28,350 nucleotides of DNA from Ectocarpus siliculosus (Eukaryota > Sar > Phaeophyceae > Ectocarpales > Ectocarpaceae). The position numbers and the translations under genes are program-made. How positions within the stretch are numbered: position 1 is the first letter of the stretch; the number at the start of each line of letters is the position of its first letter. The DNA lies in assembly GCA_000310025.1 (NCBI GenBank), contig FN648379.1:4863-33212 (forward strand), given 5' to 3'. Of this stretch, positions 3,813 through 24,443 are shown one piece after another. The notes beneath the pieces are model-generated. The model ran no database searches and was not told the origin of the DNA. It saw nothing but the letters and a program-made list of their open reading frames with translations.

Positions 3813-4078
3813 TGTGGTGGTATGCACGCGTGATGAAGTCTGGTAGACCCGTGAAGAAGTACTCACTTGTTATTACTCTTGACTGTAGAACAGCAGCAGC
3901 AGTAGCTGTTGCCCTGGGTATCGGTAAAATGACACCAAGGGGCGCAGGATCCTCAGTACAAGCAGGGCCTACTAGATCCTGTCCCCTGTTTTATCCTTCC
4001 ACGGGGAGTGACATCTCTCCGCCGCTCTCCGCGCCTTCTATAAGGAACCATTCTCTTTTATGTTCCGTCTACACATCT
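3813..4078 (-). repeat. Relic gypsy LTR (minus strand), larger part
   Basis: The sequence is an inverted, diverged copy of the 266-bp LTR of the gypsy element at 12823-24439. It starts at the LTR end (TGTGGTGGTATGCACGCGTG, reverse complement of the CATACCACCACA terminus) and follows the LTR body in order (CAGCAGCAGCAGTAGCTGTTG, GGGGCGCAGGATCCTCAGTA, CCTGTTTTATCCTTCC) up to ACACATCT. Differences include a small insertion in the CTCTCCGC stretch. At ACACATCT the LTR is interrupted by a LINE insertion, and the LTR resumes at 5291. The 119-codon plus-strand frame over this segment is not a gene. Confidence 0.92.
4071..4078. repeat. Target-site duplication, left copy (LINE insertion)
   Basis: ACACATCT here is repeated at 5291-5298. 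Between them lies non-LTR retrotransposon DNA. Removing one copy plus the insert restores continuity of the surrounding LTR, so this is read as a target-site duplication of 8 bp. Confidence 0.85.
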
Positions 4079-12818: not shown

Positions 12819-12822
12819 CGTG
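12819..12822. repeat. Target-site duplication CGTG, left
   Basis: CGTG immediately precedes the 5' LTR (TGTTGTAGG) and also immediately follows the 3' LTR at 24440-24443. A 4-bp duplication is in the usual Ty3/gypsy range. Confidence 0.8.
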
Positions 12823-13088
12823 TGTTGTAGGATTCAGATATGTAGACGGAACATAGAAGAGAATGGTTCCTTCTAGAAGGCGCGGAGAGATGTAACTCCC
12901 CGCGGAAGGATAAAACAGGGGACAGGATCTAGTAGCCCCTGCTTGTATTGAGGATCCTGCGCCCCTTGGTGTCATTCCTACCGATACCCAAGGCAACAGC
13001 TACTGCTGCTGCTGTTCTGCAAGAGTAATAACAAGTGAGTTCTTCTTCACGGGTCAACCAGACTTCATCACGCGTGCATACCACCACA
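12823..13088 (+). repeat. 5' LTR (266 bp)
   Basis: Begins TGTTGTAGGATTCAG and ends CATACCACCACA. It is the same length as the 3' LTR and differs at about four positions (positions 5, 17, 63 and 81 of the LTR, approximately). It holds GGATAAAAC as the only TATA-like motif, and AACAAGTGAGT near its end, which resembles a splice donor. A frame continuous with gag is open from 12914. Confidence 0.95.
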
Positions 13089-13089
13089 C

Positions 13090-13108
13090 TTGGCGTCGTC
13101 GGCAGGAC
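13090..13108 (+). other. Candidate primer-binding site
   Basis: TTGGCGTCGTCGGCAGGAC starts one base after the 5' LTR, where minus-strand priming occurs in LTR elements. TGG at its beginning would pair with the CCA end of a tRNA. It resembles the tRNA-Asp-type sites of plant Tat/Athila elements (TGGCGCCGTT-CCGGGG), but several positions differ. The identity of the tRNA cannot be decided without the host tRNA set. Confidence 0.5.
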
Positions 13109-13312
13109 CTCCGCGAACGTGAGGAGCGGTCGTCCCGCGTCTCGGGAGCCGGCGGGCGAGCTGCTTCTGCACCGACCACCTCTGCCGCTTCGTCTCGAAC
13201 GTATGCGGCTGCAGCTTCGACAAGCCCGGTCACCCGCTCCTCGTCGTCGCGACGTGGCCCTATCACTTTCGAGTCTGGTGATTTCAGGTTCACCCCGGCC
13301 AAACTAGCTGAT

Positions 13313-14830
13313 GTGGCCCAATATCAGCAATTTAACTTCCTTCCTGGGGATAGCCAATCGGTCAGGGACTTGGCCACGGAACTGGCCGTCGCGTTGCCGG
13401 TGGTCGCCACCATCCAGGAGGCGGTGGATGTGGCCACCACCTCCCGTCCGGATCTTCGGGATCTGGCCGGCCGTTTCCTCGCTGGGATGCGCACGGCCAA
13501 CGCCCACGCCACTGCTCCCGTGGTGTACCCTGGCTGCAGCGGCTCGTCTTCGGAGGCCTCCTATGGGTTCCAGCAGCCGGCGCCGGGTCGTGTCAAGCAG
13601 GCGCAACCGTCGCGTTCGAGTCGGGAGAGTGGTCCTGGTAGCTCGGGCGAGGAGTCTGGCTGGAGCTCGGCCGGAGCATCGCGTCGACCCCCGAAGCCCT
13701 CGTCCTCTTCGGTGGGTGGGAGCCGGGAGAGAACGGCGGCCAAGCGTGGCGGGGACGGCGCTCGTGGCTCCAAGAGCAAGAGCGGGACCGGGTCGGGCTC
13801 GGACACGAGCTTGTCCCGCAAGTTGGGCCGCCAAAGGCAAGTAGTTCCGTCTCTTATGGACGCGACTTCGGGTGCCCGTTTCTTTTTGCGTGATGATTTT
13901 GTTCCTCCGGCTTCGGCCCCCCCCGTTTCTTCGGAAACTCGTGTTGCGTTTTCGAACCTTCCGGCTTCGCCCCTCCCCGTTTCTTCGGAAACTCGTGTTG
14001 CGTTTTCGAACCTTCCGGCTTCGGCCCCACCCGTTTCTTCGGAAACTGCTGCACCCCCTGTTTTTTCTACCGCTCACCATGCTGTAGATTCAGGAATTGT
14101 GCAGAACTCTGGGTTTTCGAACCCAACCCCCCCCTCGGCGTTTGTACCACTTGTGCCGGGTGTTCCGCATGTTGTGTTGTCTTCGGACTATGCTCCCCCT
14201 GCTGGTTCGGTAGCTGCTGTCACACCCCCCGTTGTTATTGATGATCGTGTTTTGCCACTTTCTTCGAACATCGCACATGCTCGTCAAGCCACGATTGATG
14301 AGACCGATGCTCATGCACGTGCGGTTCATGTCACCACAGTGAAACGCGCGTACATCACCCTCAACTTGAAAAAAATCGAGAGTGTCGCTACCATGCCCTT
14401 TCCTGCAACTCTGTTGCCGGGAGATGGCTATCAACAGCTTCTTCGCACAACACGTACGGCCTTATCCGATATTTTGTTGTTGTGTGATGAGCAGAGTGAT
14501 GGGTTGCACGGTACCGATTTCGTGCGTGGGTGGGAACGACCCCTCGAAAAGAAACTTTTGAGTGCGATCACCCCTGACAAGCCCTCCACTGCCGATCTCG
14601 TCCTCTCCATCACTGATTACTTTCAGCAGGTGAAGAGAAGCTTGGACGGCGGTGCCACTGGACCAGAAGCTTTTCAGTTGCTGTTGCGTCATCTTGCAGA
14701 GCAATTTGATGTCAGCGACCGTCGAAGAGTCGTTTTTGCGGCTACAACAATTTGGCGTAGCAGATGGTACTTCTTTCGCGGATTACCTTCGTGCTTTCCG
14801 TTTGTTGGTTTCGTCTGTGACTGGCTCTGA
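13313..14830 (+). pseudogene. gag: Gag polyprotein, N-terminal and central part (frameshifted)
   Basis: Codes for the structural (capsid) precursor. The first in-frame ATG is only at about 13487; the listed start is a GTG, and the same frame is open upstream into the LTR (to 12914), so the true start is unknown. The first 60 residues look structured (NFLPGDSQSVRDLA). Then comes a Ser/Pro/Gly-rich disordered region with three 18-residue repeats containing PVSSETRVAFSNLPAS (13911-14045). The capsid-like part around 14330-14720 contains FVRGWERPLEKKLLSAI and ITDYFQQVKRSLDGG. Around 14710-14730 the natural sequence moves to another frame (+1), and from there this frame is nonsense until the stop at 14830. 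No cleavage sites can be assigned. Confidence 0.8.
13911..14045 (+). repeat. gag: Three tandem 54-bp repeats inside gag
   Basis: GTTTCTTCGGAAACTCGTG recurs at 13925, 13979 and 14033 (the third diverges after AAACT). The period of 54 bp keeps the frame and encodes an 18-residue repeat. It lies in the disordered region of gag. Confidence 0.85.
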
Positions 14831-15833
14831 GCGTACTCTGGCTCCTAGTGTATCCATGGTTCTAGAAATAGTGCGGCATTCGGTCTGCAAGCAGTTTCCG
14901 AGTTTGTCTCCGATTTTGTACCCGGGTGCTCTGGCCACGGCCGTCACTCCCTTTGCGTCGATTGCGGATATGTGGGAGGCGTTCGCGCCTCTAGCGACAA
15001 ATAAAACCCCGGCTATCGGCGGTTCATCTTATTTTTCGTTGCCTTCGACGCGTGGCTCCTCGCAGCCTCGACGGTCCCAACACCGCGCCCCCGCGCCTTC
15101 GGGCCAGTGGGCACCAGGTTCTGCTCAGAACCCTGTAGTTTTGCCGGTACAATCGCACGATGCCGACCCTTTCACACGCAACTATAATTCTTGGCCTGCC
15201 TCGCAAGCCGATTGGTCTGATGTATACGCTCTCACTTCTAGTTTTCGTAACACGGATGGTCCTTTTTTGTGGACTCCTTTGTTGACACAAGAGGCTCGCT
15301 CGCAAGCCTTCCGCGAAAACAAGAATCGCTGTCTGAACTGCTCGGGTGAAGACCATTCCATGAAGCAATGCGTTGCACCGTTCACGAATTCTAGTGGGTT
15401 GTTGAACCCCGAGTTGGGCCTCCTCAATGACGATTCTGCTGCTTTTAGACGTTGGCAAGGCCGTATGCGGTCTTTTCGCCGAAAAAGTGCGGACAACCGC
15501 CAAAACAATCAGGATAGACGCCACCAGCGCTCTTCCTCTTCGTCCTCTCAGCGTCGAAACCACGCTGGGAATCGCCGTTCCGACGGTGGTAGTTCCCCTC
15601 ACACTCATCAGACACAATCGCACAACAGTGGGCATGCCCCGGGAAATTCTGCGGGTAACTCTCACCCTCAGCAACACCCTTCGATCAACACCCACCACAC
15701 TGGTGCTCTGTCCCTCTATCAACCACAAACACATGCACACACCGGTCCTTTGTCTGGCATCATGGTTACGACCAATCACAATGCCCGTCAACCTGGCAAC
15801 TTCCAAAATGGTGGTCGTTCTCGCAGCGGATGA
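14652..15833 (+). pseudogene. gag: Gag polyprotein, C-terminal part with zinc knuckle (nucleocapsid)
   Basis: Continuation of gag in the next frame. Meaningful sequence begins near 14715 (VEESFLRLQQFGVADGTSFA), completing the capsid-like domain. A retroviral-type zinc knuckle CLNCSGEDHSMKQC (C-x2-C-x4-H-x4-C) is at about 15330-15371 and would bind RNA. A basic stretch (RRWQGRMRSFRRK) and a His/Asn/Gln/Ser-rich tail follow, ending at TGA 15831-15833. The first codons of the listed span overlap the upstream gag frame and are shadow. The tail overlaps the start of the pol frame by about 400 nt, and moving from gag to pol requires a +1 shift, as in Ty3. Confidence 0.85.
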
Positions 15834-18800
15834 CTCATCGGCGGTGGTTCGCCTACTTCCCCCGGACCGCCTTCAGCATCTTCGGGGACTTCGTCTTTCG
15901 GGGACTTCGTCTCGTTCATCACAAGACGCTCGTGTGTCACGCTCTGTTGTCCCTAATACTTCGGTTTTATGCAACAGCGACAATACTTCGGTATCTGTCG
16001 CGCCGTCACACACTGTTGCCTCTAGCACTTCGGTCCTACGCAACGATAACCTCACTTCGGTGAATGTTATCCCTTCTGGTACTTCGGTGCCGCACAATAT
16101 CAACCATACTTCGGTATCCGCTGTTTCCCCCAGTGTTGATCAGGTCGGTATCCAGACATATGCTCTCGTCCCACCTTCTTCATCGCACTCATCGTCTGCC
16201 ACCTCTGCGTCTCTGCCTCTTCGGGCTGGCGCTCCGTCAGAAACTAACCAGTCTGGCGCGAGTGCTGTCTTGAGGTGCGGGAACAGAACCGTAGGACCTT
16301 CGGGGCCATCGAGTACCGCTCGTTTGTCGGGCACTGCTCGTTCGCTCCCCCCGTCGTCTGCAGATCAGACCGGCCGTAGCCATGCGCTTTGGACGATTGA
16401 AAAGGAATCGCCTGAATTGGTTACCTCGGGTGAATCTTCGGATACGCTCAACTCGTCTGTGCTCGCTTCCGTTGAGGGTTCGCCCTCGATTGTTGCACCG
16501 GTAGCTAACTTAACTGGTTCCAACCGGCAAGTTGCAGGTTCAAATTCGCCTGGCTTCGAATCACATTGTTCTCTTGGTCCTGACCGCCGAACACCATCAG
16601 ATTCCGCCACGAGATATTTCGACCATGGATCGTTTTCGAGCGCTCCATCTCTTCCGACGCACGCTCGCCCCACGGCGCACCATACCAGGCCGCCGCGACC
16701 GACGTCGACAGTGTTGACACCACCGCTTCGGGAGGACCCTCCCGGAGTGACCTCCGAACAGCCGGCGGTCTCGCGTACCTTGTCACGGAGGAATGGCCAG
16801 GAGCACGCCCGGTTTGGTTCTTTAACCGACCCGGCCTTGGCGGCCGTTCCTAGCGAAAGCGGCCTGTTCAATGACACCTTACGAGGCGTTTTTTCAGGTT
16901 TAGAATTGGGGCGCACCCAGCGTATTGTCGCTGGCCCAATTATTGCGAACAATTCGGCTCCCGTCGATTCTTCGCCGGTCTCTGACATACCCGAGACTGT
17001 CCCCATGGAAGTCCATGCCGTAAATTACGATGCGGGCGTTTCGACTGCCTCCGCTTCGGCTACACCAGCTTCGGCTGCCACCTCAGCTTCGGCTGACCGC
17101 ACTCCAGGCGTTTCGACTCCTGCAGTTCCCGCTGTCTTTGACCCGTCTAACGAGTATTGTACTCCTGACATGGTCTTCTTTTGGCAGCCCCCCTCTCCCT
17201 TTTCCCAGTGGACACCGTCGACTTTTGTGGTCGATGGAGTGGTGTACTCGTGTGCTGAGCAGTTTTTCGCTGCGGAAAAAACTCGTCTTTTCGACGACCA
17301 TAGCGCATTACAGCACGTCATGCGCGTATCCGATCCTGCCTTGCACAAGAAGTTTGGCCGCGGCGCCCGTGGTTTCGACCCACTTCTTTGGAAACGCGAG
17401 CGCGAAAATATTGTGCTCACTTGCTCTTACGCAAAATTTAGTCAAAACTCCGAGTTGCACGATCACCTTCTCGGATCTGGTGACAAAATCCTTGCCGAAG
17501 CCAGCCCCCACGACCGTATTTGGGGTATTGGCCTTCAAGCCGATGATCCTGACGCTCAATACACCTCCCGATGGCGTGGTCTCAATTTGTTGGGCAACGC
17601 CCTTCAACGAGTACGCAGTCTTTTGCGATGCAACGCCCCGCCACCCGAGCGCAGCTCTCGTTTGCTACCCCCCAACGACCACGTTTCGACGTCGTCTCAA
17701 CATAACGCGGTCTATGAAGTTAGCCCTTCCACACACCAGCGTCTTCGGACGGCCTCAAGCCCTCCGTCGACTGAACGATTCACGTCGTTTTCACAATACG
17801 CTGCGAATGTTCCATCGGATCATGACACCGCTGTTTGGGCCGTGTCTTCCGGGTACACCCCGCCATCCTCTTCCTCTTCTTTGCTTCCTGAGCAAGATCC
17901 GGATTTGATTGATGGTGTTGTTACCATCGATGATGACTCTTTCACCACCCAAATCCTCACTCACAGCGGTTCAGCTTCTGTTCAGTTTGGATGTGTTGCT
18001 CTTTTGGACACGGGTTCCCCGCGGTCTTTTATTAGTGCATCTGCGTGGGAATCCATGAAAGCCGCTTCGGCCGGTTCGTCGTTGTCTGAGAAACAAACCC
18101 AACCTCGCTGTTGGGGAGGTTTCGGCGAATCTGCTCCGCTTCAAACTTCGACTATTGTCCGTTTGAGCGTGCAGTTTCTTCGCAAGCGCCTTCCTACTTC
18201 CTCTCTCGCTGTTTGGGCATACGTTGTTCCTGATGGTGTTACGCATCATGACGTACTCCTCGGGAGAGACAGTTGGATGCGGTTTAGCGACCGCTCTTAC
18301 CGCACTTTGCGTACGAAACGCCCTGGTGACCGTGTTTTTGGTGAGCTCACTCTGGCTCAGCATGGCAGTTGCGGTGCCACCGCATTTGCTCACGATTTGT
18401 CTTCCACAGATGGTAACTGCCAACTTCGCTATGCTGGGAAACATTCCGTCCAACTTCACCCCGATCATAGCCTTGTTCCGGTTAATTTGGTACGCAGCGA
18501 TGGCTCTCCAGCTCTCGTAGGTAACTATCTCGTGGATATGCTTCCACAATGTGCTATGTTTTCTTCCGAGGAACATTTTGTGCAAAATGGTTGCCAAAGA
18601 CTCCCGCTCGCGGGTATCTCTTCTCTCGAACCAGGCGACATTCTGGGTACAGCTTCGGCTCCCCTTCTTCGCGTGCCTCTCAGTGCTGTGTCTCGCCACA
18701 GTTTGAGCGATGGTCTTCAATCTGCGGCTCAAGATCCCACCATTGCTTCGGGCAACTTGGTTCCGGGTCCTGTTTCGACAGGTGGCATTGATTCGCCTGC

Positions 18801-19515
18801 CGAGCGTCGCATTGATGACCCCTTCGTGTATAATTTGCATGAGCGACCCACGCCGTCGCCACGCGGCAAAGAGGACCCTGGTTCTGCCAGTGCTTCTCTT
18901 TCGTCGCCTCCGCCTGCTCTTCTCGAGCGGTTGACGTCCGAACAACGTCAAAGTTTTTCCCGCGTGTGGGATAAGCTCCCCTGCCATCTCCGTGAGATTT
19001 CTTTTGATCTCCATGGTCCGGGTTGGACTCCAGATGTCATCACTCAGCTTGGTAACGTCCTGTGCGACTATCATGATGTCTTCTCGAAGTCCCCCACCGA
19101 TTTTGGATCTTGTTCGCTTTTTCCTTCGAAGCTTACAGTTCCTCCAGGCAGTGCACCCGTCACGTCTCATCCATACCGCGTTAACCCCCCGGTGGCGAAA
19201 CAAGTTGACGCGATCCTTGATCAATATCTTGCGGCTGGTCTGATCCAACATTCGACCTCGCCCTACTCGAGCCCCTTGGTAGTCATACCAAAAACATCTG
19301 GTGGTGTTCGCATCACGGTCAATTATCGCAAGCTCAACAAGCTTTGTGCTTTGAGCCAGCTTCCGATTCCTCGAGTTGATGATACTTTGGACAAGTTGTT
19401 GAAAGGGCGAATTTATTCCCTTTTCGATATGAAGTCTTCGTTCCACCAAATCACGGTTCACCGTGACACAATCCCTTTGACGGCGTTCGTGACGTCTCCT
19501 GGGCTTTTTGAGTAG
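15427..19515 (+). pseudogene. pol: Pol polyprotein part 1: Ser-rich linker, NADAR, aspartic protease, RT N-terminal half
   Basis: One long frame of 1,362 codons. The first ~135 codons overlap gag and are probably not translated as such. Then come a Ser/Thr-rich linker with TSV-type repeats (about 15830-17150, residues 135-575), the NADAR domain (residues ~582-733), a second disordered linker, an aspartic protease with LLDTGSPRSFIS (catalytic Asp at about residue 861) and LLGRD near 18259, and the start of reverse transcriptase (from about residue 1232: GSAPVTSHPYRVNPP, SPYSSPLVVIPK, VNYRKLNKL, FDMKSSFHQI). The usual VDYR is VNYR. The frame ends at TAG 19513-19515, where the conserved motif F-E-W is expected, so a TGG-to-TAG nonsense mutation is the simplest reading. 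Protease, RT and NADAR would be released from the polyprotein by the protease. Confidence 0.92.
17170..17625 (+). other. NADAR (YbiA/DUF1768-like) domain embedded in pol
   Basis: Residues about 582-733 of the pol frame match the NADAR fold along its whole length. Seen motifs: FFW then PFSQW, VDGVVYSCAEQFFAAEK (the glutamate and lysine of the family's G-x-x-Y/W-x-S/C-x-E-x-x-x-x-x-x-K signature), YAKFSQN, LLGSGDKILAEASP, DRIWGIG, and RWRGLNLLGNALQRVR (the N-x-LG motif). Family knowledge: YbiA-type enzymes hydrolyse N-glycosidic bonds of riboflavin-pathway intermediates, and others bind ADP-ribose and remove it from guanine in DNA (DarT-NADAR systems). The segment has no stop or shift and has all expected motifs. 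It lies between the disordered linker and the protease, where Ty3/gypsy elements normally have nothing. Enzymatic function in the element is inference. Confidence 0.9.
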
Positions 19516-20734
19516 TTGAAGATGCCTCAAGGCAGTTCTGCTGCCCCTGGGTGGTTTTGCAAGGTGGTCAACGAAGTCATCAAAAACTCTCCACGGTGTT
19601 GCATCGTACTTGGATGATTTGATCGTTTTCGACGACAACCCTGCTTCTCATGTTGATACCATGCGCGCTCTGTTTGAACGTTTGCGTACACACAACTTGA
19701 AACTCACCCCACCGAAGGCCACCATTGGCGCTACCGAAGCGGACTTCCTCGGCCACACCATCTCTCCCGACGGTGTTCGGCCTAACGGGGCCAAGGTTGC
19801 GGCCCTCACCAAAATGCCCATGCCCAAGGATGTTAAACAACTTCGCTCTCTTCTCGGCGGCCTCAGCTTCTACCGCAAGTTCCTTCCCAACATGGCTACG
19901 CGAATTCGACCTCTGACCACTCTTCTCAAGAAGCAGGCGACGTTCGTCTTCACCCCTGCCATGGAGCAAGCTGTTCGCGTCCTGCTGTCGGAGTTGGCCA
20001 ACCCTCCTATCTTGGTTTATCCGGATTGGGATGCCGTTTCGGACGGCTCGCGACCTTTTCGTCTCTACTGTGATGCTAGTCGCGATGGGTTTGGCGGGAC
20101 TCTCGAACAAGAACAGCCGGATGGCTCCATCCGACCCATCGTTTTCATCAGCCAGGCCACTTTGGACTCCGAACGTCATTGGAATTCTCTCGACCTTGAG
20201 GCGGGTAGCATCGTGTGGTGTATCAAACGACTTCGCGGTTATTTGTGGGGTACCAAATTTCGCATTTTTACCGACCACAAATCTCTTGAGCATTTTGCCA
20301 AGGTGGGGGAGAACAATGCCCGCGTTCAGCGTTGGCTCGAATTTCTCACCGCCTACAATTACACTCTCGAGTACTGCAAGGGTTCCGCAAATGGCAACGC
20401 TGATTTCCTCTCTCGCCTTCCGATTGATGCGGCGGAATGTGACCGATCTGGTCGCAGCCGCTTAACACCGAATGACGATGAGGAGGGCGTGTTCTTCATC
20501 CGTTCTTGTGGCCTTACGCCTTCTGGCCATCGCGCCGTGGGTGTTGGCTTGGGTGGGCTCGTCCCCACTTCCCCGACTTCGGTCTTGGGTGGGCTGGTCC
20601 CCTCCGCAGATGATTTCGTCGACTTCCGTCGGCATGGTCCACGTCTCTCGCCGTCAGGCCTTTCGTCTCCGCCTGGCATCTGGAACATCGCACCCCAAGC
20701 AACTCCGCGGGTTGTCTCCTTCGCGCCTGCGTAA
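19516..20734 (+). pseudogene. pol: Pol part 2: RT C-terminal half and RNase H
   Basis: After the TAG the first frame still reads LKMPQGSSAAPGWFCKVVNE, the RT region just before the catalytic YLDD box. The A-run at 19582-19586 then carries one base too many, and the sequence continues in the next frame as YLDDLIVFDDNP (19607 on). RT then has the usual connection residues (FLGHTISPDGV, LLGGLSFYRKFLPNMA). RNase H of the Ty3/gypsy type follows with catalytic residues visible: D in LYCDAS (about 20070), E in LDLEAGS, D in FTDHKSLEHF and D in GNADFLSRLP. This long frame ends with TAA at 20732-20734 after a Gly/Pro/Ser linker. The open stretch alone lacks the RT N-terminus. Confidence 0.9.
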
Positions 20735-22940
20735 GCGGACCCTCGATTGGTCTGACTCCTTACATTCTTCGGTGGAGGACATTTTGGCTCTCGAGCCCGA
20801 GTCTTCGCAGGCCGTCTCGCCGACTGCCGCATCACGACCGACTCTCGGCCCTACTCAAGTGATTTCCACGCGGACTCGTCGCCGCACGGCGGTTGTGGCA
20901 GGCAAGCCCCTCCCGCCCGTGGATTATGGCTTCTCTGAGGACCCACCTGCCCCCACTCGGATTTCCGCTTCGCCCCGATCGTTTCGACGTTCTTCGCCCG
21001 CGTCTTCAGTATCGACTACGCCCCCCGTTTTGACCAGGTTGGTTTCGACTCCTGGTGCTGACGCTTCGATCCCAGACCTTCATACGCCTCTGGCTCGTGG
21101 AAGGGATCTTGCATCTTCGACGCATCCCGCAACTTCGGTTGCTCCTGCCCAGCAGTCTTCTGCTGCCCCCGGTTCTTCGGAATCTCCGACGCGTTCGGTT
21201 TCAACCACTCGTACGCCTTCGTCTTCGGCTTCCGCTGCTACTCGGCCTTCGGGTGGATTGCAGTCGGAGTCTCCTGAATCGGCCCCCTCTTCTATCGAGG
21301 CGGCTTTACATTCTTCGGCAGATTTAGCCTTCCGGGCGTCTGTCGAACGTTTCTCGCATGCTGATTGGGCTCGCGAGCAACGTAACAAACCTGTTTGTGA
21401 TGCAGCTGCTCGTTTCATCCTTCTGGGTCGGCCTTCGGCTCTCCCTTCGGATTTCCTGGATCACCTTCCGTCCGCTCGTCGACCTCCTCTGTCGGAGATC
21501 CGTGACCTGTCTAACAAAGGCCGGTTACATGTTGACGATGATGGTTTGGTCTTGCTTGTTCGCAAGCAAACCGCGACCCCGTCGTCTACGACCACACGTC
21601 CTGGCGGGCGTGCTGCTCGCCTTCTCAACGACGAACCTGTTCGGATTTACGTTCCCATGCTCATGCGTCCCTGGATCATGCAAGCCTGTCACGCTGATGC
21701 ATCCTGCCACCTCGGTGCCGCTCGCACGCTTAGCATGCTGGAACGTTTCTATTGGTGGGTTGGCATGAGTGTTTGCACGAAGTGGTGGGTACGGCATTGT
21801 TTGCGATGCCAAGCCCGCAAATCATCTCGTCAAACGCCTCGATGGCCTACTTTGCGCCTTTCGCTGCCTTCGGGCCCTGGTGTGTCGGTGAGCGTCGATT
21901 ATTTCGGTCCCCTCCCGTTGACACCGCGTGGAAACACATATATTCTGCTTTTCACTGATCGTGTCAGCCGCCGTGCTGATATGTACGCGGTTACGGCTGC
22001 GGAATTCACCGCCGAAGGCACCGCTGACGTACTTGTCAATCGGTATATCCCTTTGTGGGGTTGCCCTTTGAGTCTCTTGTCTGATAATGGCTCTCAGTTT
22101 TGTTCTACACTGTCGCAGGCTGTGTACGCCCGTCTGGCTATCCGCAAAGTGGCTACTAGCTCTTACCATCCCAACGGCAATGGGGGTGTGGAGCGCGTCA
22201 ATCACACTATGGCTCAGATGATGGCTATGGTCGTCAATGAGAGGCAAGATGATTGGGACATTCATCTGCCGCACGTTGAGTTTGCCTACAACAATTCGGT
22301 TAGTGCCGCTACTGGTTTGGCGCCCAACGAGGTGCATATGAACCGACTGCCACGCATGCCGATGACGGTTTTTGAGCATCCATATGCTCGAGGCCACCAA
22401 AGCTGGCATCGCGATCAACTTGAGTATTGCGATCTTGCTGCTGATCGCCAAGGTCGTTCTTACGATTTAGTTCGCGAACAGCACAACCTGTCCGTTTCGC
22501 GGATTGAGCGGCGTAACTCCGCTCTGTCGGATGTTTTGCGCAAGGTTCCCTCATACACCGTCGGTGGATGGGTTTGGGTGTACAACACCGAATCTACCAT
22601 TCGCCAAGGTGTTCGTTCAGGCACGGATGACAAGGTTCTCAAGGCTAAGTTGTCTTTCCTTTGGACTGGTCCGTTCAAGATCTTGGCCGTGGGTCCGTGT
22701 CCTGACGCCCCCGGCGGTTGTCCTCTGGCTTCCAAGTTACTGTATTTGGATCTTCCATCGGATCTGCCGGGTCCGGACTCGAAAAACCGTGTGTCGGTTG
22801 CGCGTTGCAAGCCTTGCGCTAATCCGCATGACACTGAAGACTTGCCTCGGTTCCTGCCTGCCGGCCTTACACCGTATGTGCTAAACTCCTATGCGAATAA
22901 ATCTCCTCCCTACCATGTTACGGAAGACGACGTGTCGACT

Positions 22941-23110
22941 CCGGTCGAACGTCTCGAGGTTGACCGCATTAGTGGCCATCAGTCTGTTCGTGGCCGTGGT
23001 GGCACCATCGCTGTTTTATACGAAACGCATTGGAAAGGTCTTCTTCGTCCTTCTTGGGAACGTGAGATGGACCTCCAGCATTCCAAGACCCACATTCTCT
23101 GGTACTGGAC
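22941..23110 (+). other. Chromodomain-like segment of the integrase
   Basis: Reads VERLEVDRISG, a spacer, then VLYETHWKGLLRPSWEREMDL. This follows the chromodomain pattern V-E-x-I-x-D-x-R, Y-x-V-K-W-x-G, W-E-x-x-x-x-L, with LYETHWKG at the place of YLVKWKG. Chromoviral Ty3/gypsy integrases carry such a module at their C-terminus to direct insertion to marked chromatin. Confidence 0.7.
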
Positions 23111-23271
23111 GGGTTCGCCTGATCAACACTGCCAAACGAATCGCCGCTATCGGGCGATGCGCATTGGTGCGGCCACCCGCGAGATGGCGCGCGTTAAAGG
23201 TGAGCGAGCCTTGCTTTCGGGCTATTCGCTCGTCTCTCGTTCAACATGGGACCGTCGCTTCGCCAATACTC

Positions 23272-23430
23272 CGCTACCTGCAGGCGCCGTCTTCTGGTAC
23301 AAAGCTCGCGATGGATTCTGGTGGTTGGGCAAGATTACTGGACCGCCTCTACCGTCCGACTTCTACGTCGTCCGCTTCTTGGACGATCCTGGCCCTGTCA
23401 AGCTCGCCCTTCCTGATGTTCGCTACTCCA
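23272..23430 (+). other. Tudor-like segment after the chromodomain
   Basis: LPAGAVFWYKARDGFWWLGK, then GPPLPSDFYVVRFLDDPGPV, fits a Tudor/Agenet-type barrel: a small residue and V, aromatic WY/WW cluster, then Y-V-V-x-F-x-D-D. It lies beyond the usual integrase and chromodomain. Assignment is by eye only. Confidence 0.5.
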
Positions 23431-23576
23431 CCGCTGAAACCGCCGTCTCCGGATCCTGGTGCCTCCAAGTTCACAGCGGCAGCGCCCTTTTTAAGGGAAT
23501 CCTTCGCAACGTCGACATGTCGCGTGGTGACCCTGGGACTGATTCGTTGCCTCATAACGTTGCGCGCCCCCATTAA

Positions 23577-24173
23577 GACCACATGCTGGGTTGTATTGGC
23601 TTTCTGTTGCTTTTCGCGTTGTTGGGTCTTCTTTTAGCACTATTTGGATTGTTTTCAGCGTTGTTTGGGTTGTTTTTAGCCTTGGTTGGTTTTCCCTTTT
23701 CCCTCGCTTTCTTTAGTGCCTTTAGGGTTTTGTCCCGACCTGTAGGTGTTTCGCGCCCATTGTTGTCGCTTATTCGCTGCCGCGGCGACTGCGTGAGTGG
23801 CGTATCTTCTCGGTTTTTTTTTCGATACCGGTCTGTCTTGTCGTTCCGGCTGTGATCCTTCCTTTTTGTCGTTCCGACGACCTTTGTTTTCTTCTGGCTT
23901 TCTTGCTTTCTTCGTGTTTTCCTTTCTTCGGTTTCGACCTTGTTCTGGTCGTCCTCGGCCTTCTTAGCCCCGTCAGTTTCGTTAGGTGTCTTCTGGTTGT
24001 TTAGATGTCAAACGATGGTCTTGCGACCCATCGAGTGAGAGGTGTGGGAGGGTGAATTGTGCTGTTTTGGAGCTCCATATCCTCGATACTTTTCATTTAG
24101 AGACTCGACAATTGCTTGCCAAAACTCCGAGGCTTTATAGTAGCTGCGTATGAGAACCTCCAGGGTGGGCTAG
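23577..24173 (+). other. Gypsy 3' untranslated region
   Basis: T-rich DNA between the pol stop and the 3' LTR. A 90-codon frame at 23583-23855 begins with a very hydrophobic stretch (GLLLALFGLFSALFGLFLAL), which arises from TTTGG/TTGTTT-like repeats. It has the form of a membrane segment but no recognised family. The last ~230 bp match the relic at 5317-5545 in reverse complement. Confidence 0.6.
24161..24170 (+). other. Weak polypurine-tract candidate
   Basis: CAGGGTGGGC lies a few bases upstream of the 3' LTR start (24174), where the plus-strand primer is expected. It is short and interrupted by a T, so it is only a positional candidate. Confidence 0.35.
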
Positions 24174-24439
24174 TGTTATAGGATTCAGATGTGTAGACGG
24201 AACATAGAAGAGAATGGTTCCTTCTAGAAGGCGCGAAGAGATGTAACTCCCCGTGGAAGGATAAAACAGGGGACAGGATCTAGTAGCCCCTGCTTGTATT
24301 GAGGATCCTGCGCCCCTTGGTGTCATTCCTACCGATACCCAAGGCAACAGCTACTGCTGCTGCTGTTCTGCAAGAGTAATAACAAGTGAGTTCTTCTTCA
24401 CGGGTCAACCAGACTTCATCACGCGTGCATACCACCACA
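24174..24439 (+). repeat. 3' LTR (266 bp)
   Basis: Begins TGTTATAGGATTCAG, ends CATACCACCACA, and is the same length as the 5' LTR with about four transitions between them. The minus-strand frame over it is a shadow. Confidence 0.95.
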
Positions 24440-24443
24440 CGTG
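24440..24443. repeat. Target-site duplication CGTG, right
   Basis: Directly follows the 3' LTR and matches 12819-12822. Confidence 0.8.

What the first reader, a model, noticed from the sequence alone, without database searches (positions are those of the whole stretch)
17170..17625. A NADAR (ADP-ribose/NAD-linked glycosidase-like) domain captured inside a Ty3/gypsy Pol polyprotein
Seen: an uninterrupted stretch of about 150 residues in the same frame as the aspartic protease and RT, with the full NADAR motif set (FFW/PFSQW; VDGVVYSCAEQFFAAEK; DRIWGIG; RWRGLNLLGNAL). Known: NADAR proteins include YbiA-type N-glycosidases and enzymes that remove ADP-ribose from guanine in DNA, acting as antitoxins in DarT systems. 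Inference: the retrotransposon may use it to reverse ADP-ribosylation of its cDNA or RNA by a host defence, or to handle NAD-derived signals. I cannot confirm whether this arrangement has been described before.
Basis: partly seen in the sequence, partly recalled or inferred. Interest (0 to 1): 0.92.

Follow-up and report, generated by a model that had tools for sequence, protein, structure and literature searches.

The report
NADAR enzyme domain in brown-algal retrotransposons
A brown-algal jumping gene of the Ty3/gypsy type carries, near the start of its enzyme polyprotein, a well-preserved enzyme domain known elsewhere for removing ADP-ribose from nucleic acids; the arrangement was briefly reported in 2025, and here it is found to be kept by selection and probably gained once.

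Summary
Window 17176-17628 encodes a full NADAR (YbiA-type) domain (Pfam E=1.9e-42) in one frame with the aspartic protease and the first part of RT, inside an 11.6-kb Ty3/gypsy element (LTRs 262/266 identical, CGTG duplication). It is no one-off: 150 NADAR matches pass Pfam's cut-off in this genome, and 123 of 129 protease matches examined have NADAR upstream. Eight active-site residues mapped from Phytophthora NADAR are all present; five are invariant in 38/38 intact copies, a sample biased to intact ones. Omega is 0.13, as for the protease (0.12; RT 0.04).

The arrangement is published: Dinatale et al. 2025 report YbiA-type NADAR at the N-terminus of Pol in one Ectocarpus Gypsy lineage. Not found in my six literature searches: the selection test; an in-frame UGA-C between Gag and NADAR-Pol (16/16 same-frame copies, four families); an early-branching NADAR-less relative, suggesting one gain; and intron-containing host NADAR genes as nearest cellular kin in the best tree, which weakens but does not exclude a bacterial origin. 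Function is untested; a Pol-packaged de-ADP-ribosylase is my best guess.

The parts
12819..12822 (.). target-site duplication CGTG, left copy (right copy 24440-24443)
12823..13088 (+). 5' LTR (TGTT...CACA), 266 nt
   Evidence: 262 of 266 identical to the 3' LTR; repeat D1
13091..13106 (+). putative tRNA primer-binding site starting TGG, just behind the 5' LTR (tRNA not identified)
   Evidence: sequence; inference
13313..15833 (+). gag region, split over two frames in this copy (ORFs 13313-14830 and 14652-15833); zinc-knuckle region 15192-15551
   Evidence: Cys/His motif read by eye, no Pfam match
15831..15833 (+). UGA stop at the gag/pol boundary followed by C; same context as in other family-A copies
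15427..19515 (+). pol ORF: linker, NADAR, aspartic protease, first part of reverse transcriptase
17176..17628 (+). NADAR domain (YbiA subfamily)
   Evidence: PF08719 E=1.9e-42; TIGR02464 E=2.8e-40; 8bau, 2b3w
17257..17523 (+). span of the active-site codons: E 17257, K 17278, R 17359, W 17389, R 17401, E 17497, D 17512, W 17521 (P. nicotianae E43, K50, R79, W89, R93, E125, D130, W133)
17917..18441 (+). aspartic protease region (ALLDTGSPRSFI), recognised by eye; no Pfam match at E 0.01
   Evidence: a homologous match in 41 of 41 copies, 34 of them full length in one piece
19087..20419 (+). reverse transcriptase and RNase H (frame break between 19512 and 19610)
   Evidence: PF00078 (two pieces, each below cut-off), PF17917, PF17919
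21582..22751 (+). integrase
   Evidence: PF17921 over cut-off, PF00665 just below it
22782..23501 (+). C-terminal chromodomain-like part (weak Pfam match) and a further conserved domain of Tudor-like appearance (no Pfam match)
24174..24439 (+). 3' LTR

Best explanation
The window holds a partly decayed copy of a brown-algal (Ectocarpus-type) Ty3/gypsy LTR retrotransposon of a lineage that probably gained a YbiA-type NADAR domain once and has kept it. Shown by sequence: the domain lies at the N-terminal side of Pol, behind a Gag stop codon and in front of the protease; it is intact, keeps its active site and is under purifying selection. Inferred: Pol, NADAR included, is made at low level by reading through the UGA-C that ends gag; the protease frees NADAR inside the particle; there, next to the RNA genome and nascent cDNA, it acts as an ADP-ribose/N-glycosidic hydrolase, most likely removing ADP-ribose from guanine bases put there by a host enzyme or toxin, so that reverse transcription is not blocked. 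The confidence given covers the whole statement; for structure, membership and selection I would say 0.9, for a single gain 0.7, for enzymatic activity 0.75, for the nucleic-acid substrate 0.35-0.4.
For: Profile and PDB matches. The same order of conserved regions wherever they are present in the 20 copies fetched with up to 10 kb (some lack ends or hold N). NADAR about 240-480 nt in front of the protease in 116 of 129 protease matches, and found in 7 more on inspection. Active site: E43, K50, E125, D130, W133 in 38/38 intact copies; R79, W89, R93 in 37/38, the deviant being L027, whose low protein identity (71%) against 97% DNA identity to its family points to frame changes inside the domain. 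Glu at 125 marks the YbiA subfamily. Omega over 27 copies: NADAR 0.131, protease 0.120, RT 0.040. Window against L017: 24.5 synonymous changes (pS 0.223), 18.5 nonsynonymous (pN 0.050), Fisher p=4e-7. In-frame TGA followed by C between zinc knuckle and NADAR in 16 of 16 same-frame copies, families A, B, C, E; the same device, TGA-CT, is described for fission-yeast Ty3/gypsy elements (PMC10085805, passage). In PMC11833690 NADARs were the only hydrolases of those tested that cleared guanosine ADP-ribosylation from RNA; P. nicotianae NADAR and E. coli YbiA act on guanine-ADPr in vitro; a myxobacterial YbiA-type protein is the antitoxin of an ART toxin, YarT.
Against: No assay. No DarT (PF14487) or KptA (PF01885) profile match in this genome, searched exon by exon, so no obvious nucleic-acid ADP-ribosylating writer is known there; PARP gave four short exon matches over the cut-off, best E=4.5e-6. 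The active-site residues also bind ADP-ribose, so their conservation fits a reader. E. coli YbiA acts on riboflavin intermediates and, though active on guanine-ADPr in vitro, does not rescue cells from DarT1. In the wider set P0200 has Asp at E43 and P0022 Thr at K50. Family B alone gives pN/pS 0.78 for NADAR, from few changes. The copies analysed were picked for long frames or high scores, which favours intact domains. Readthrough and protease release are inferred.
Confidence: 0.4

Rival explanations
1. Metabolite damage control: NADAR hydrolyses free ADP-ribose derivatives, NAD-derived signals or damaged N-glycosides, as E. coli YbiA does with riboflavin intermediates, and shields the particle or the cell rather than editing nucleic acid.
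For: TIGR02464 (riboflavin intermediate N-glycosidase) E=2.8e-40; the viral survey PMC9503650 prefers soluble ADPr derivatives for phage NADARs (passages).
Against: Placement in Pol argues for work in the particle, and the same survey favours macromolecular ADPr for eukaryotic RNA-virus polyproteins. Not excluded.
Confidence: 0.25
2. One reading: NADAR binds ADP-ribose and steers the preintegration complex to ADP-ribosylated chromatin or DNA breaks, alongside the C-terminal chromodomain-like part.
For: ADPr-binding residues kept; a chromatin-reader-like part in the same Pol.
Against: The glutamates needed for catalysis in studied NADARs are invariant in 38/38 copies; the element already has a reader-like part next to integrase, while NADAR sits at the other end of Pol.
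Confidence: 0.15
3. Passenger: a captured fragment without function.
For: A few copies lack it (L054 remnant; L052, L053, L055, L059).
Against: Omega 0.13, invariant active-site residues, presence in all six families sampled, A-F, NADAR and RT trees alike in their main groups.
Confidence: 0.03
4. Origin: direct capture from bacteria, as suggested in print.
For: Outer relatives are bacterial, such as planctomycete MAG proteins; AU tests do not reject it (p=0.28 with all planctomycete-type relatives, 0.18 with P0027/29/39 only).
Against: The best ML tree puts intron-containing brown-algal host NADAR genes (L063, L062) and two standalone proteins (Pylaiella P0026; P0028) within the retrotransposon clade (P0026 and P0028 also); trees that keep them out of it with bacterial neighbours are 11.8 and 14.6 log-likelihood units worse, and the second is excluded by bp-RELL and c-ELW though not by AU.
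Confidence: 0.3

Closest known systems
NADAR-bearing Gypsy lineage of Ectocarpus sp. 7 (Gypsy-12_Ec32 and kin; Dinatale et al. 2025, PMC12477816)
   Same: YbiA-type NADAR at the N-terminal region of a Ty3/gypsy Pol, C-terminal chromodomain, brown alga
   Different: Their library is in supplements I could not see, so identity of families could not be checked. The main-text passages naming NADAR give no selection, active-site or host-gene result; they suggest horizontal, bacterial acquisition and RNA processing
Pol proteins of Ectocarpus sp. CCAP 1310/34 (among them P0006-P0009, P0158, P0162)
   Same: NADAR and RT of the same lineage; 87% and 91% identity to the window's NADAR region in the closest two
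   Different: Not identical, so another strain or species than the window's genome; often fragmentary gene models
Phytophthora nicotianae NADAR (I take PDB 8bau to be it, from matching residue numbers) and E. coli YbiA (2b3w)
   Same: All eight residues mapped from P. nicotianae; sequence match to both
   Different: Solved as NADAR proteins, not as parts of a retroelement
Myxobacterial YarT-YbiA toxin-antitoxin pair (PMC11125620, passages)
   Same: YbiA-type NADAR opposing an ADP-ribosyltransferase
   Different: Bacterial operon with a toxin; none seen here
NADAR in ORF1 of Crassostrea gigas Tx1 LINEs
   Same: A retrotransposon with a YbiA-type NADAR (PMC12477816)
   Different: Non-LTR element, ORF1; divergent domain; not analysed here
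DarT-NADAR toxin-antitoxin systems
   Same: Domain superfamily and likely chemistry
   Different: Those use BC4488-type NADARs with Asp; here Glu, and no DarT

Membership tests
NADAR superfamily, YbiA subfamily | Profile match over the whole domain | tested here: met
   PF08719 1-163/163, E=1.9e-42
NADAR superfamily, YbiA subfamily | Glutamate at the E125 position (Asp in BC4488, His in phage NADARs) | tested here: met
   E at 17497; 38/38 intact copies
NADAR superfamily, YbiA subfamily | Conserved E43/K50 and phosphate-binding residues | tested here: met
NADAR superfamily, YbiA subfamily | YbiA fold | not tested
NADAR superfamily, YbiA subfamily | Hydrolysis of guanine-ADPr or riboflavin intermediates | not testable with these tools
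   needs protein
Ty3/gypsy (Metaviridae) | LTRs with target-site duplication | tested here: met
Ty3/gypsy (Metaviridae) | Order protease - RT - RNase H - integrase | tested here: met
   (protease by eye)
Ty3/gypsy (Metaviridae) | RT in the Gypsy clade | tested here: inconclusive
   trees had only this clade and 8 other RVT_1 Pol proteins as outgroup; no Copia or Pao sequences were included
Ectocarpus NADAR-Gypsy lineage (PMC12477816) | NADAR at the N-terminus of Pol | tested here: met
Ectocarpus NADAR-Gypsy lineage (PMC12477816) | C-terminal chromodomain | tested here: inconclusive
   PF00385 below cut-off: window E=0.023, best of 9 copies 0.0017
Ectocarpus NADAR-Gypsy lineage (PMC12477816) | RT in the same lineage as Gypsy-12_Ec32 | not testable with these tools
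   the consensus library is in supplements, which I could not look up
DarT-NADAR toxin-antitoxin | DarT partner | tested here: not met
   no PF14487 match in the genome
DarT-NADAR toxin-antitoxin | BC4488-type Asp | tested here: not met
   Glu

The most novel reading that the evidence does not exclude
A retrotransposon lineage captured a host NADAR gene (or gave one to the host) and has since used it as a particle-borne de-ADP-ribosylase that counters a host defence marking retroelement RNA or cDNA with ADP-ribose; brown algae would then have an undescribed nucleic-acid ADP-ribosylation defence, with host and element NADARs as competing copies of one enzyme.
Probability: 0.2. Interest if true: 0.88.

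Novelty: already known. Interest (0 to 1): 0.45.

Why it matters
The gene arrangement is in print, but in the main text only as a short passage without functional tests. That the domain is kept under selection with an intact active site in an abundant element makes a concrete question testable: does a eukaryotic retroelement carry its own eraser of nucleic-acid ADP-ribosylation, and if so, who is the writer? NADARs also sit in polyproteins of some RNA viruses and in oyster LINEs (PMC9503650, PMC12477816), so an answer would reach beyond algae. The host NADAR genes offer a comparison: a stress-induced Ectocarpus NADAR protein, Esi0017_0056, is already known (PMC7922944; start of abstract, passages); whether it is one of the two genes seen here was not checked.

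Tried and rejected
Domain swapping of NADAR between copies: L027's NADAR looked foreign by protein (71%) but is 97% identical by DNA to its family; rejected. The window's own NADAR has more synonymous divergence from L017 and L028 (pS 0.21-0.22) than protease, RT or integrase (0.09-0.15), perhaps recombination; left open. NADAR-less families in the genome: L052 and L053 belong by protease to a family whose other copies (L029, L036, L040) and P0158 have NADAR. A first check of this was void because an indexing fault of mine left the query file empty; one search is the repaired run. Database Pols without NADAR: of 71 clade proteins 36 have a NADAR match (my count; the weak P0163 match, not confirmed, is left out). 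Of the other 35, most start in the NADAR-protease linker, in the protease or behind it; exceptions are P0144 (gene model with a Helitron-like start), P0160 (163 residues before its protease match, no NADAR), P0195 (360 residues before RT, neither protease nor NADAR match) and P0185 (273 residues, no NADAR). Viral source: the 80 best of 504 relatives in IMG/VR, with up to 3 kb on each side, had no other domain of the element. Long open frames of 6365 and 10887: L021 (the 10887 one) holds 5345 N; the other was not examined. An SSU rRNA search for host identity did not complete twice and not tried again; the host is inferred from protein identity.

The sample is therefore biased to intact copies. 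Three of the 41 have a stop in NADAR (L012, L029, L040). Omega used 27 copies with NADAR, protease and RT all intact, without L027.

Full report
WHAT IS THERE. The window lies in a 189-Mb, 492-contig genome. The nearest named proteins are from Ectocarpus sp. CCAP 1310/34, the closest two 87% and 91% identical over the NADAR region, so the host is very probably an Ectocarpus or close relative; which one is not shown. Positions 12823-24439 are an LTR retrotransposon with LTRs identical at 262 of 266 positions and a CGTG duplication. Conserved regions follow in the order gag, zinc knuckle, NADAR, aspartic protease, RT-RNase H, integrase, chromodomain-like part, and a further conserved C-terminal domain (zinc knuckle and protease by eye, as Pfam did not list them). 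In this copy the domains stand in several frames, so it is probably not functional; three other copies checked have one long Pol frame.

THE DOMAIN IS REAL AND COMMON. Profile matches are beyond doubt. The genome-wide search scored 150 of 230 candidates; all 150 pass Pfam's cut-off and 129 have no stop inside. Starting from the protease instead: of 129 protease matches used, 116 have a listed NADAR match about 240-480 nt upstream, 108 of them at about 260-300 nt. I inspected 12 of the 13 others: 7 have a NADAR match, 1 has a remnant with an internal deletion (L054), 4 have none within 1 kb (L052, L053, L055, L059); the thirteenth lies at a contig start. For L053, 2 kb more upstream was read: gag and zinc knuckle follow with no NADAR between; its protease start is 96% identical to that of P0158, an Ectocarpus protein that has NADAR. 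I read these as rearranged copies.

ACTIVE SITE. PMC11543638 (passages) gives the ADP-ribose contacts of P. nicotianae NADAR: E43, K50, R79, W89, R93, E125, D130, W133. The numbering fits chain 8bau minus two, so I take that chain to be this protein. All eight are identical in the window, as is K75. Among 38 intact copies, E43, K50, E125, D130 and W133 are 38/38; R79, W89 and R93 are 37/38, L027 being the exception; in the same set 43 of 160 columns are invariant. The copies were picked for long frames or high scores, so they favour intact domains. In a wider set (38 retroelement-type, 116 other NADARs) W89, D130 and W133 never vary; E125 shows only one gap (P0158); E43 is Asp in P0200 and Thr in P0127; K50 is Thr in P0022; R79 is Gln in 4 others; R93 varies often, Cys in 9 of the 38.

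SELECTION. Codon-model omega over 27 copies with all three domains intact: NADAR 0.131, protease 0.120, RT 0.040. Synonymous sites are near saturation between families (pS 0.69-0.91), so I also give the close comparison: window against L017, pN/pS 0.22 for NADAR (Fisher p=4e-7), 0.16 for protease, 0.10 for RT. Within-family pooled ratios for NADAR are 0.26 (A), 0.78 (B, few changes), 0.16 (C), 0.28 (D). Recent dead copies push such ratios up; the choice of intact copies works the other way.

PROBABLY ONE GAIN. NADAR and RT trees show the same main groups: an ENA group (P0011, P0014, P0164); a group of P0016/P0159, D, C and P0154/P0156; and A, E, B, F, though the third group is weakly supported for NADAR (69.4/69 without the host genes) and not resolved as one group for RT. 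An RT-RNase H tree of 34 proteins puts P0185, which has 273 residues before its protease match and no NADAR by a sensitive search, as the first branch of the clade (96/98), then P0173 (truncated, so uninformative), then a 100/100 clade with every NADAR-bearing member included. By eye P0185 keeps the linker beginning YEVSP that follows NADAR in the window. The simplest reading is one gain after the P0185 split. This rests on one metagenomic protein; a deletion in it, or NADAR further upstream, is possible.

HOST GENES. Two loci encode NADAR in pieces outside any element domain that I saw: L063 (C24:2124900-2127100) with four coding segments and an N-terminal Cys-rich motif, its last two segments about 75% identical to the Pylaiella littoralis protein P0026; and L062 (C24:330900-331900), partial, with a similar Cys-rich match (E=0.002) 1.4 kb upstream. 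In the ML tree of 60 sequences L062, L063, P0026 and P0028 fall inside the retroelement clade, joined to families A, B, E, F (SH-aLRT/UFBoot 95.6/99), and the joint clade has 85.7/87. AU tests reject no alternative: retroelements monophyletic without host genes p=0.24-0.32; retroelements with planctomycete-type bacteria and no host genes p=0.28; host genes with the eukaryotic set of animals and others p=0.26; retroelements with P0027/29/39 only p=0.18, the last excluded by bp-RELL and c-ELW. So capture from a host gene, donation to the host, or separate bacterial transfers remain possible; the published suggestion of bacterial transfer is weakened, not refuted.

EXPRESSION. Of 20 copies fetched with up to 10 kb, 19 have both zinc knuckle and NADAR matches; in 16 they share a frame, and all 16 have a TGA followed by C at a place that is nearly fixed within each family (A, B, C, E); for L026, which has three stops there, I took the one whose context resembles the other families'. 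L012, L015 and the window, where the frames differ, have the same TGA-C; L018 was not looked at. L011, L022, L026 and L027 have additional stops. The stop is followed by similar GG-rich sequence. Ty3/gypsy elements of fission yeasts with TGA-CT between Gag and Pol are described, and C after TGA favours readthrough (PMC10085805, passage). The terms readthrough, stop codon and frameshift do not occur in the main text of the Ectocarpus paper. If read through, NADAR is made at Pol level, as an enzyme would be, not at Gag level as a structural part would be. This is inference.

LITERATURE. Six searches. The only paper in which I saw NADAR in Gypsy Pol is PMC12477816 (outline with abstract, passages, and section 5 part 1 read; [quoted passage not shown] it suggests horizontal, bacterial acquisition and a role in RNA processing, and notes NADARs in oyster Tx1 LINEs. 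Its supplements were not seen. PMC9503650 (passages) discusses NADARs in RNA-virus polyproteins and does not use the words retrotransposon or reverse transcriptase. PMC11543638, PMC11125620 and PMC11833690 (passages) establish guanine-ADPr hydrolysis in DNA and RNA. PMC7922944 (passages) describes a stress-induced Ectocarpus NADAR protein. PMC5009743 (passages) gave background on recoding. Preprints and most subscription papers are not in the library.

VERDICT.

Noticed in passing
15831-15833 in the window; junctions in L009-L028: Conserved in-frame UGA followed by C between Gag and NADAR-Pol in four families, suggesting stop-codon readthrough.
   Followed up: partly
L063 (G000:C24:2124900-2127100) and L062 (G000:C24:330900-331900): Probable host genes in several exons with an N-terminal Cys-rich motif and a NADAR domain, close to the retroelement NADARs in the tree.
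   Followed up: partly
23232-23501: A second conserved C-terminal Pol domain behind the chromodomain-like part, Tudor-like to the eye, without any Pfam match; invariant DDPGP and GSWCL motifs in nine copies. The published Tudor is reported from another Ectocarpus Gypsy lineage.
   Followed up: partly
17167-17646 against L017 and L028: In the window's copy NADAR has more than twice the synonymous divergence of protease (and of integrase, L017 only); possible recombination with a diverged relative.
   Followed up: no
3813-4022 (-): Two inverted pieces 96-97% complementary to this element's LTRs, probably a further LTR of the family.
   Followed up: no
whole genome G000: No match to PF01885 (KptA/Tpt1) or PF14487 (DarT); four short PARP exon matches. 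Introns may hide genes from this search.
   Followed up: no
window in the PADLOC library: The NADAR domain also matches the candidate phage-defence model PDC-M42C (E=2.1e-38); meaning not examined.
   Followed up: no
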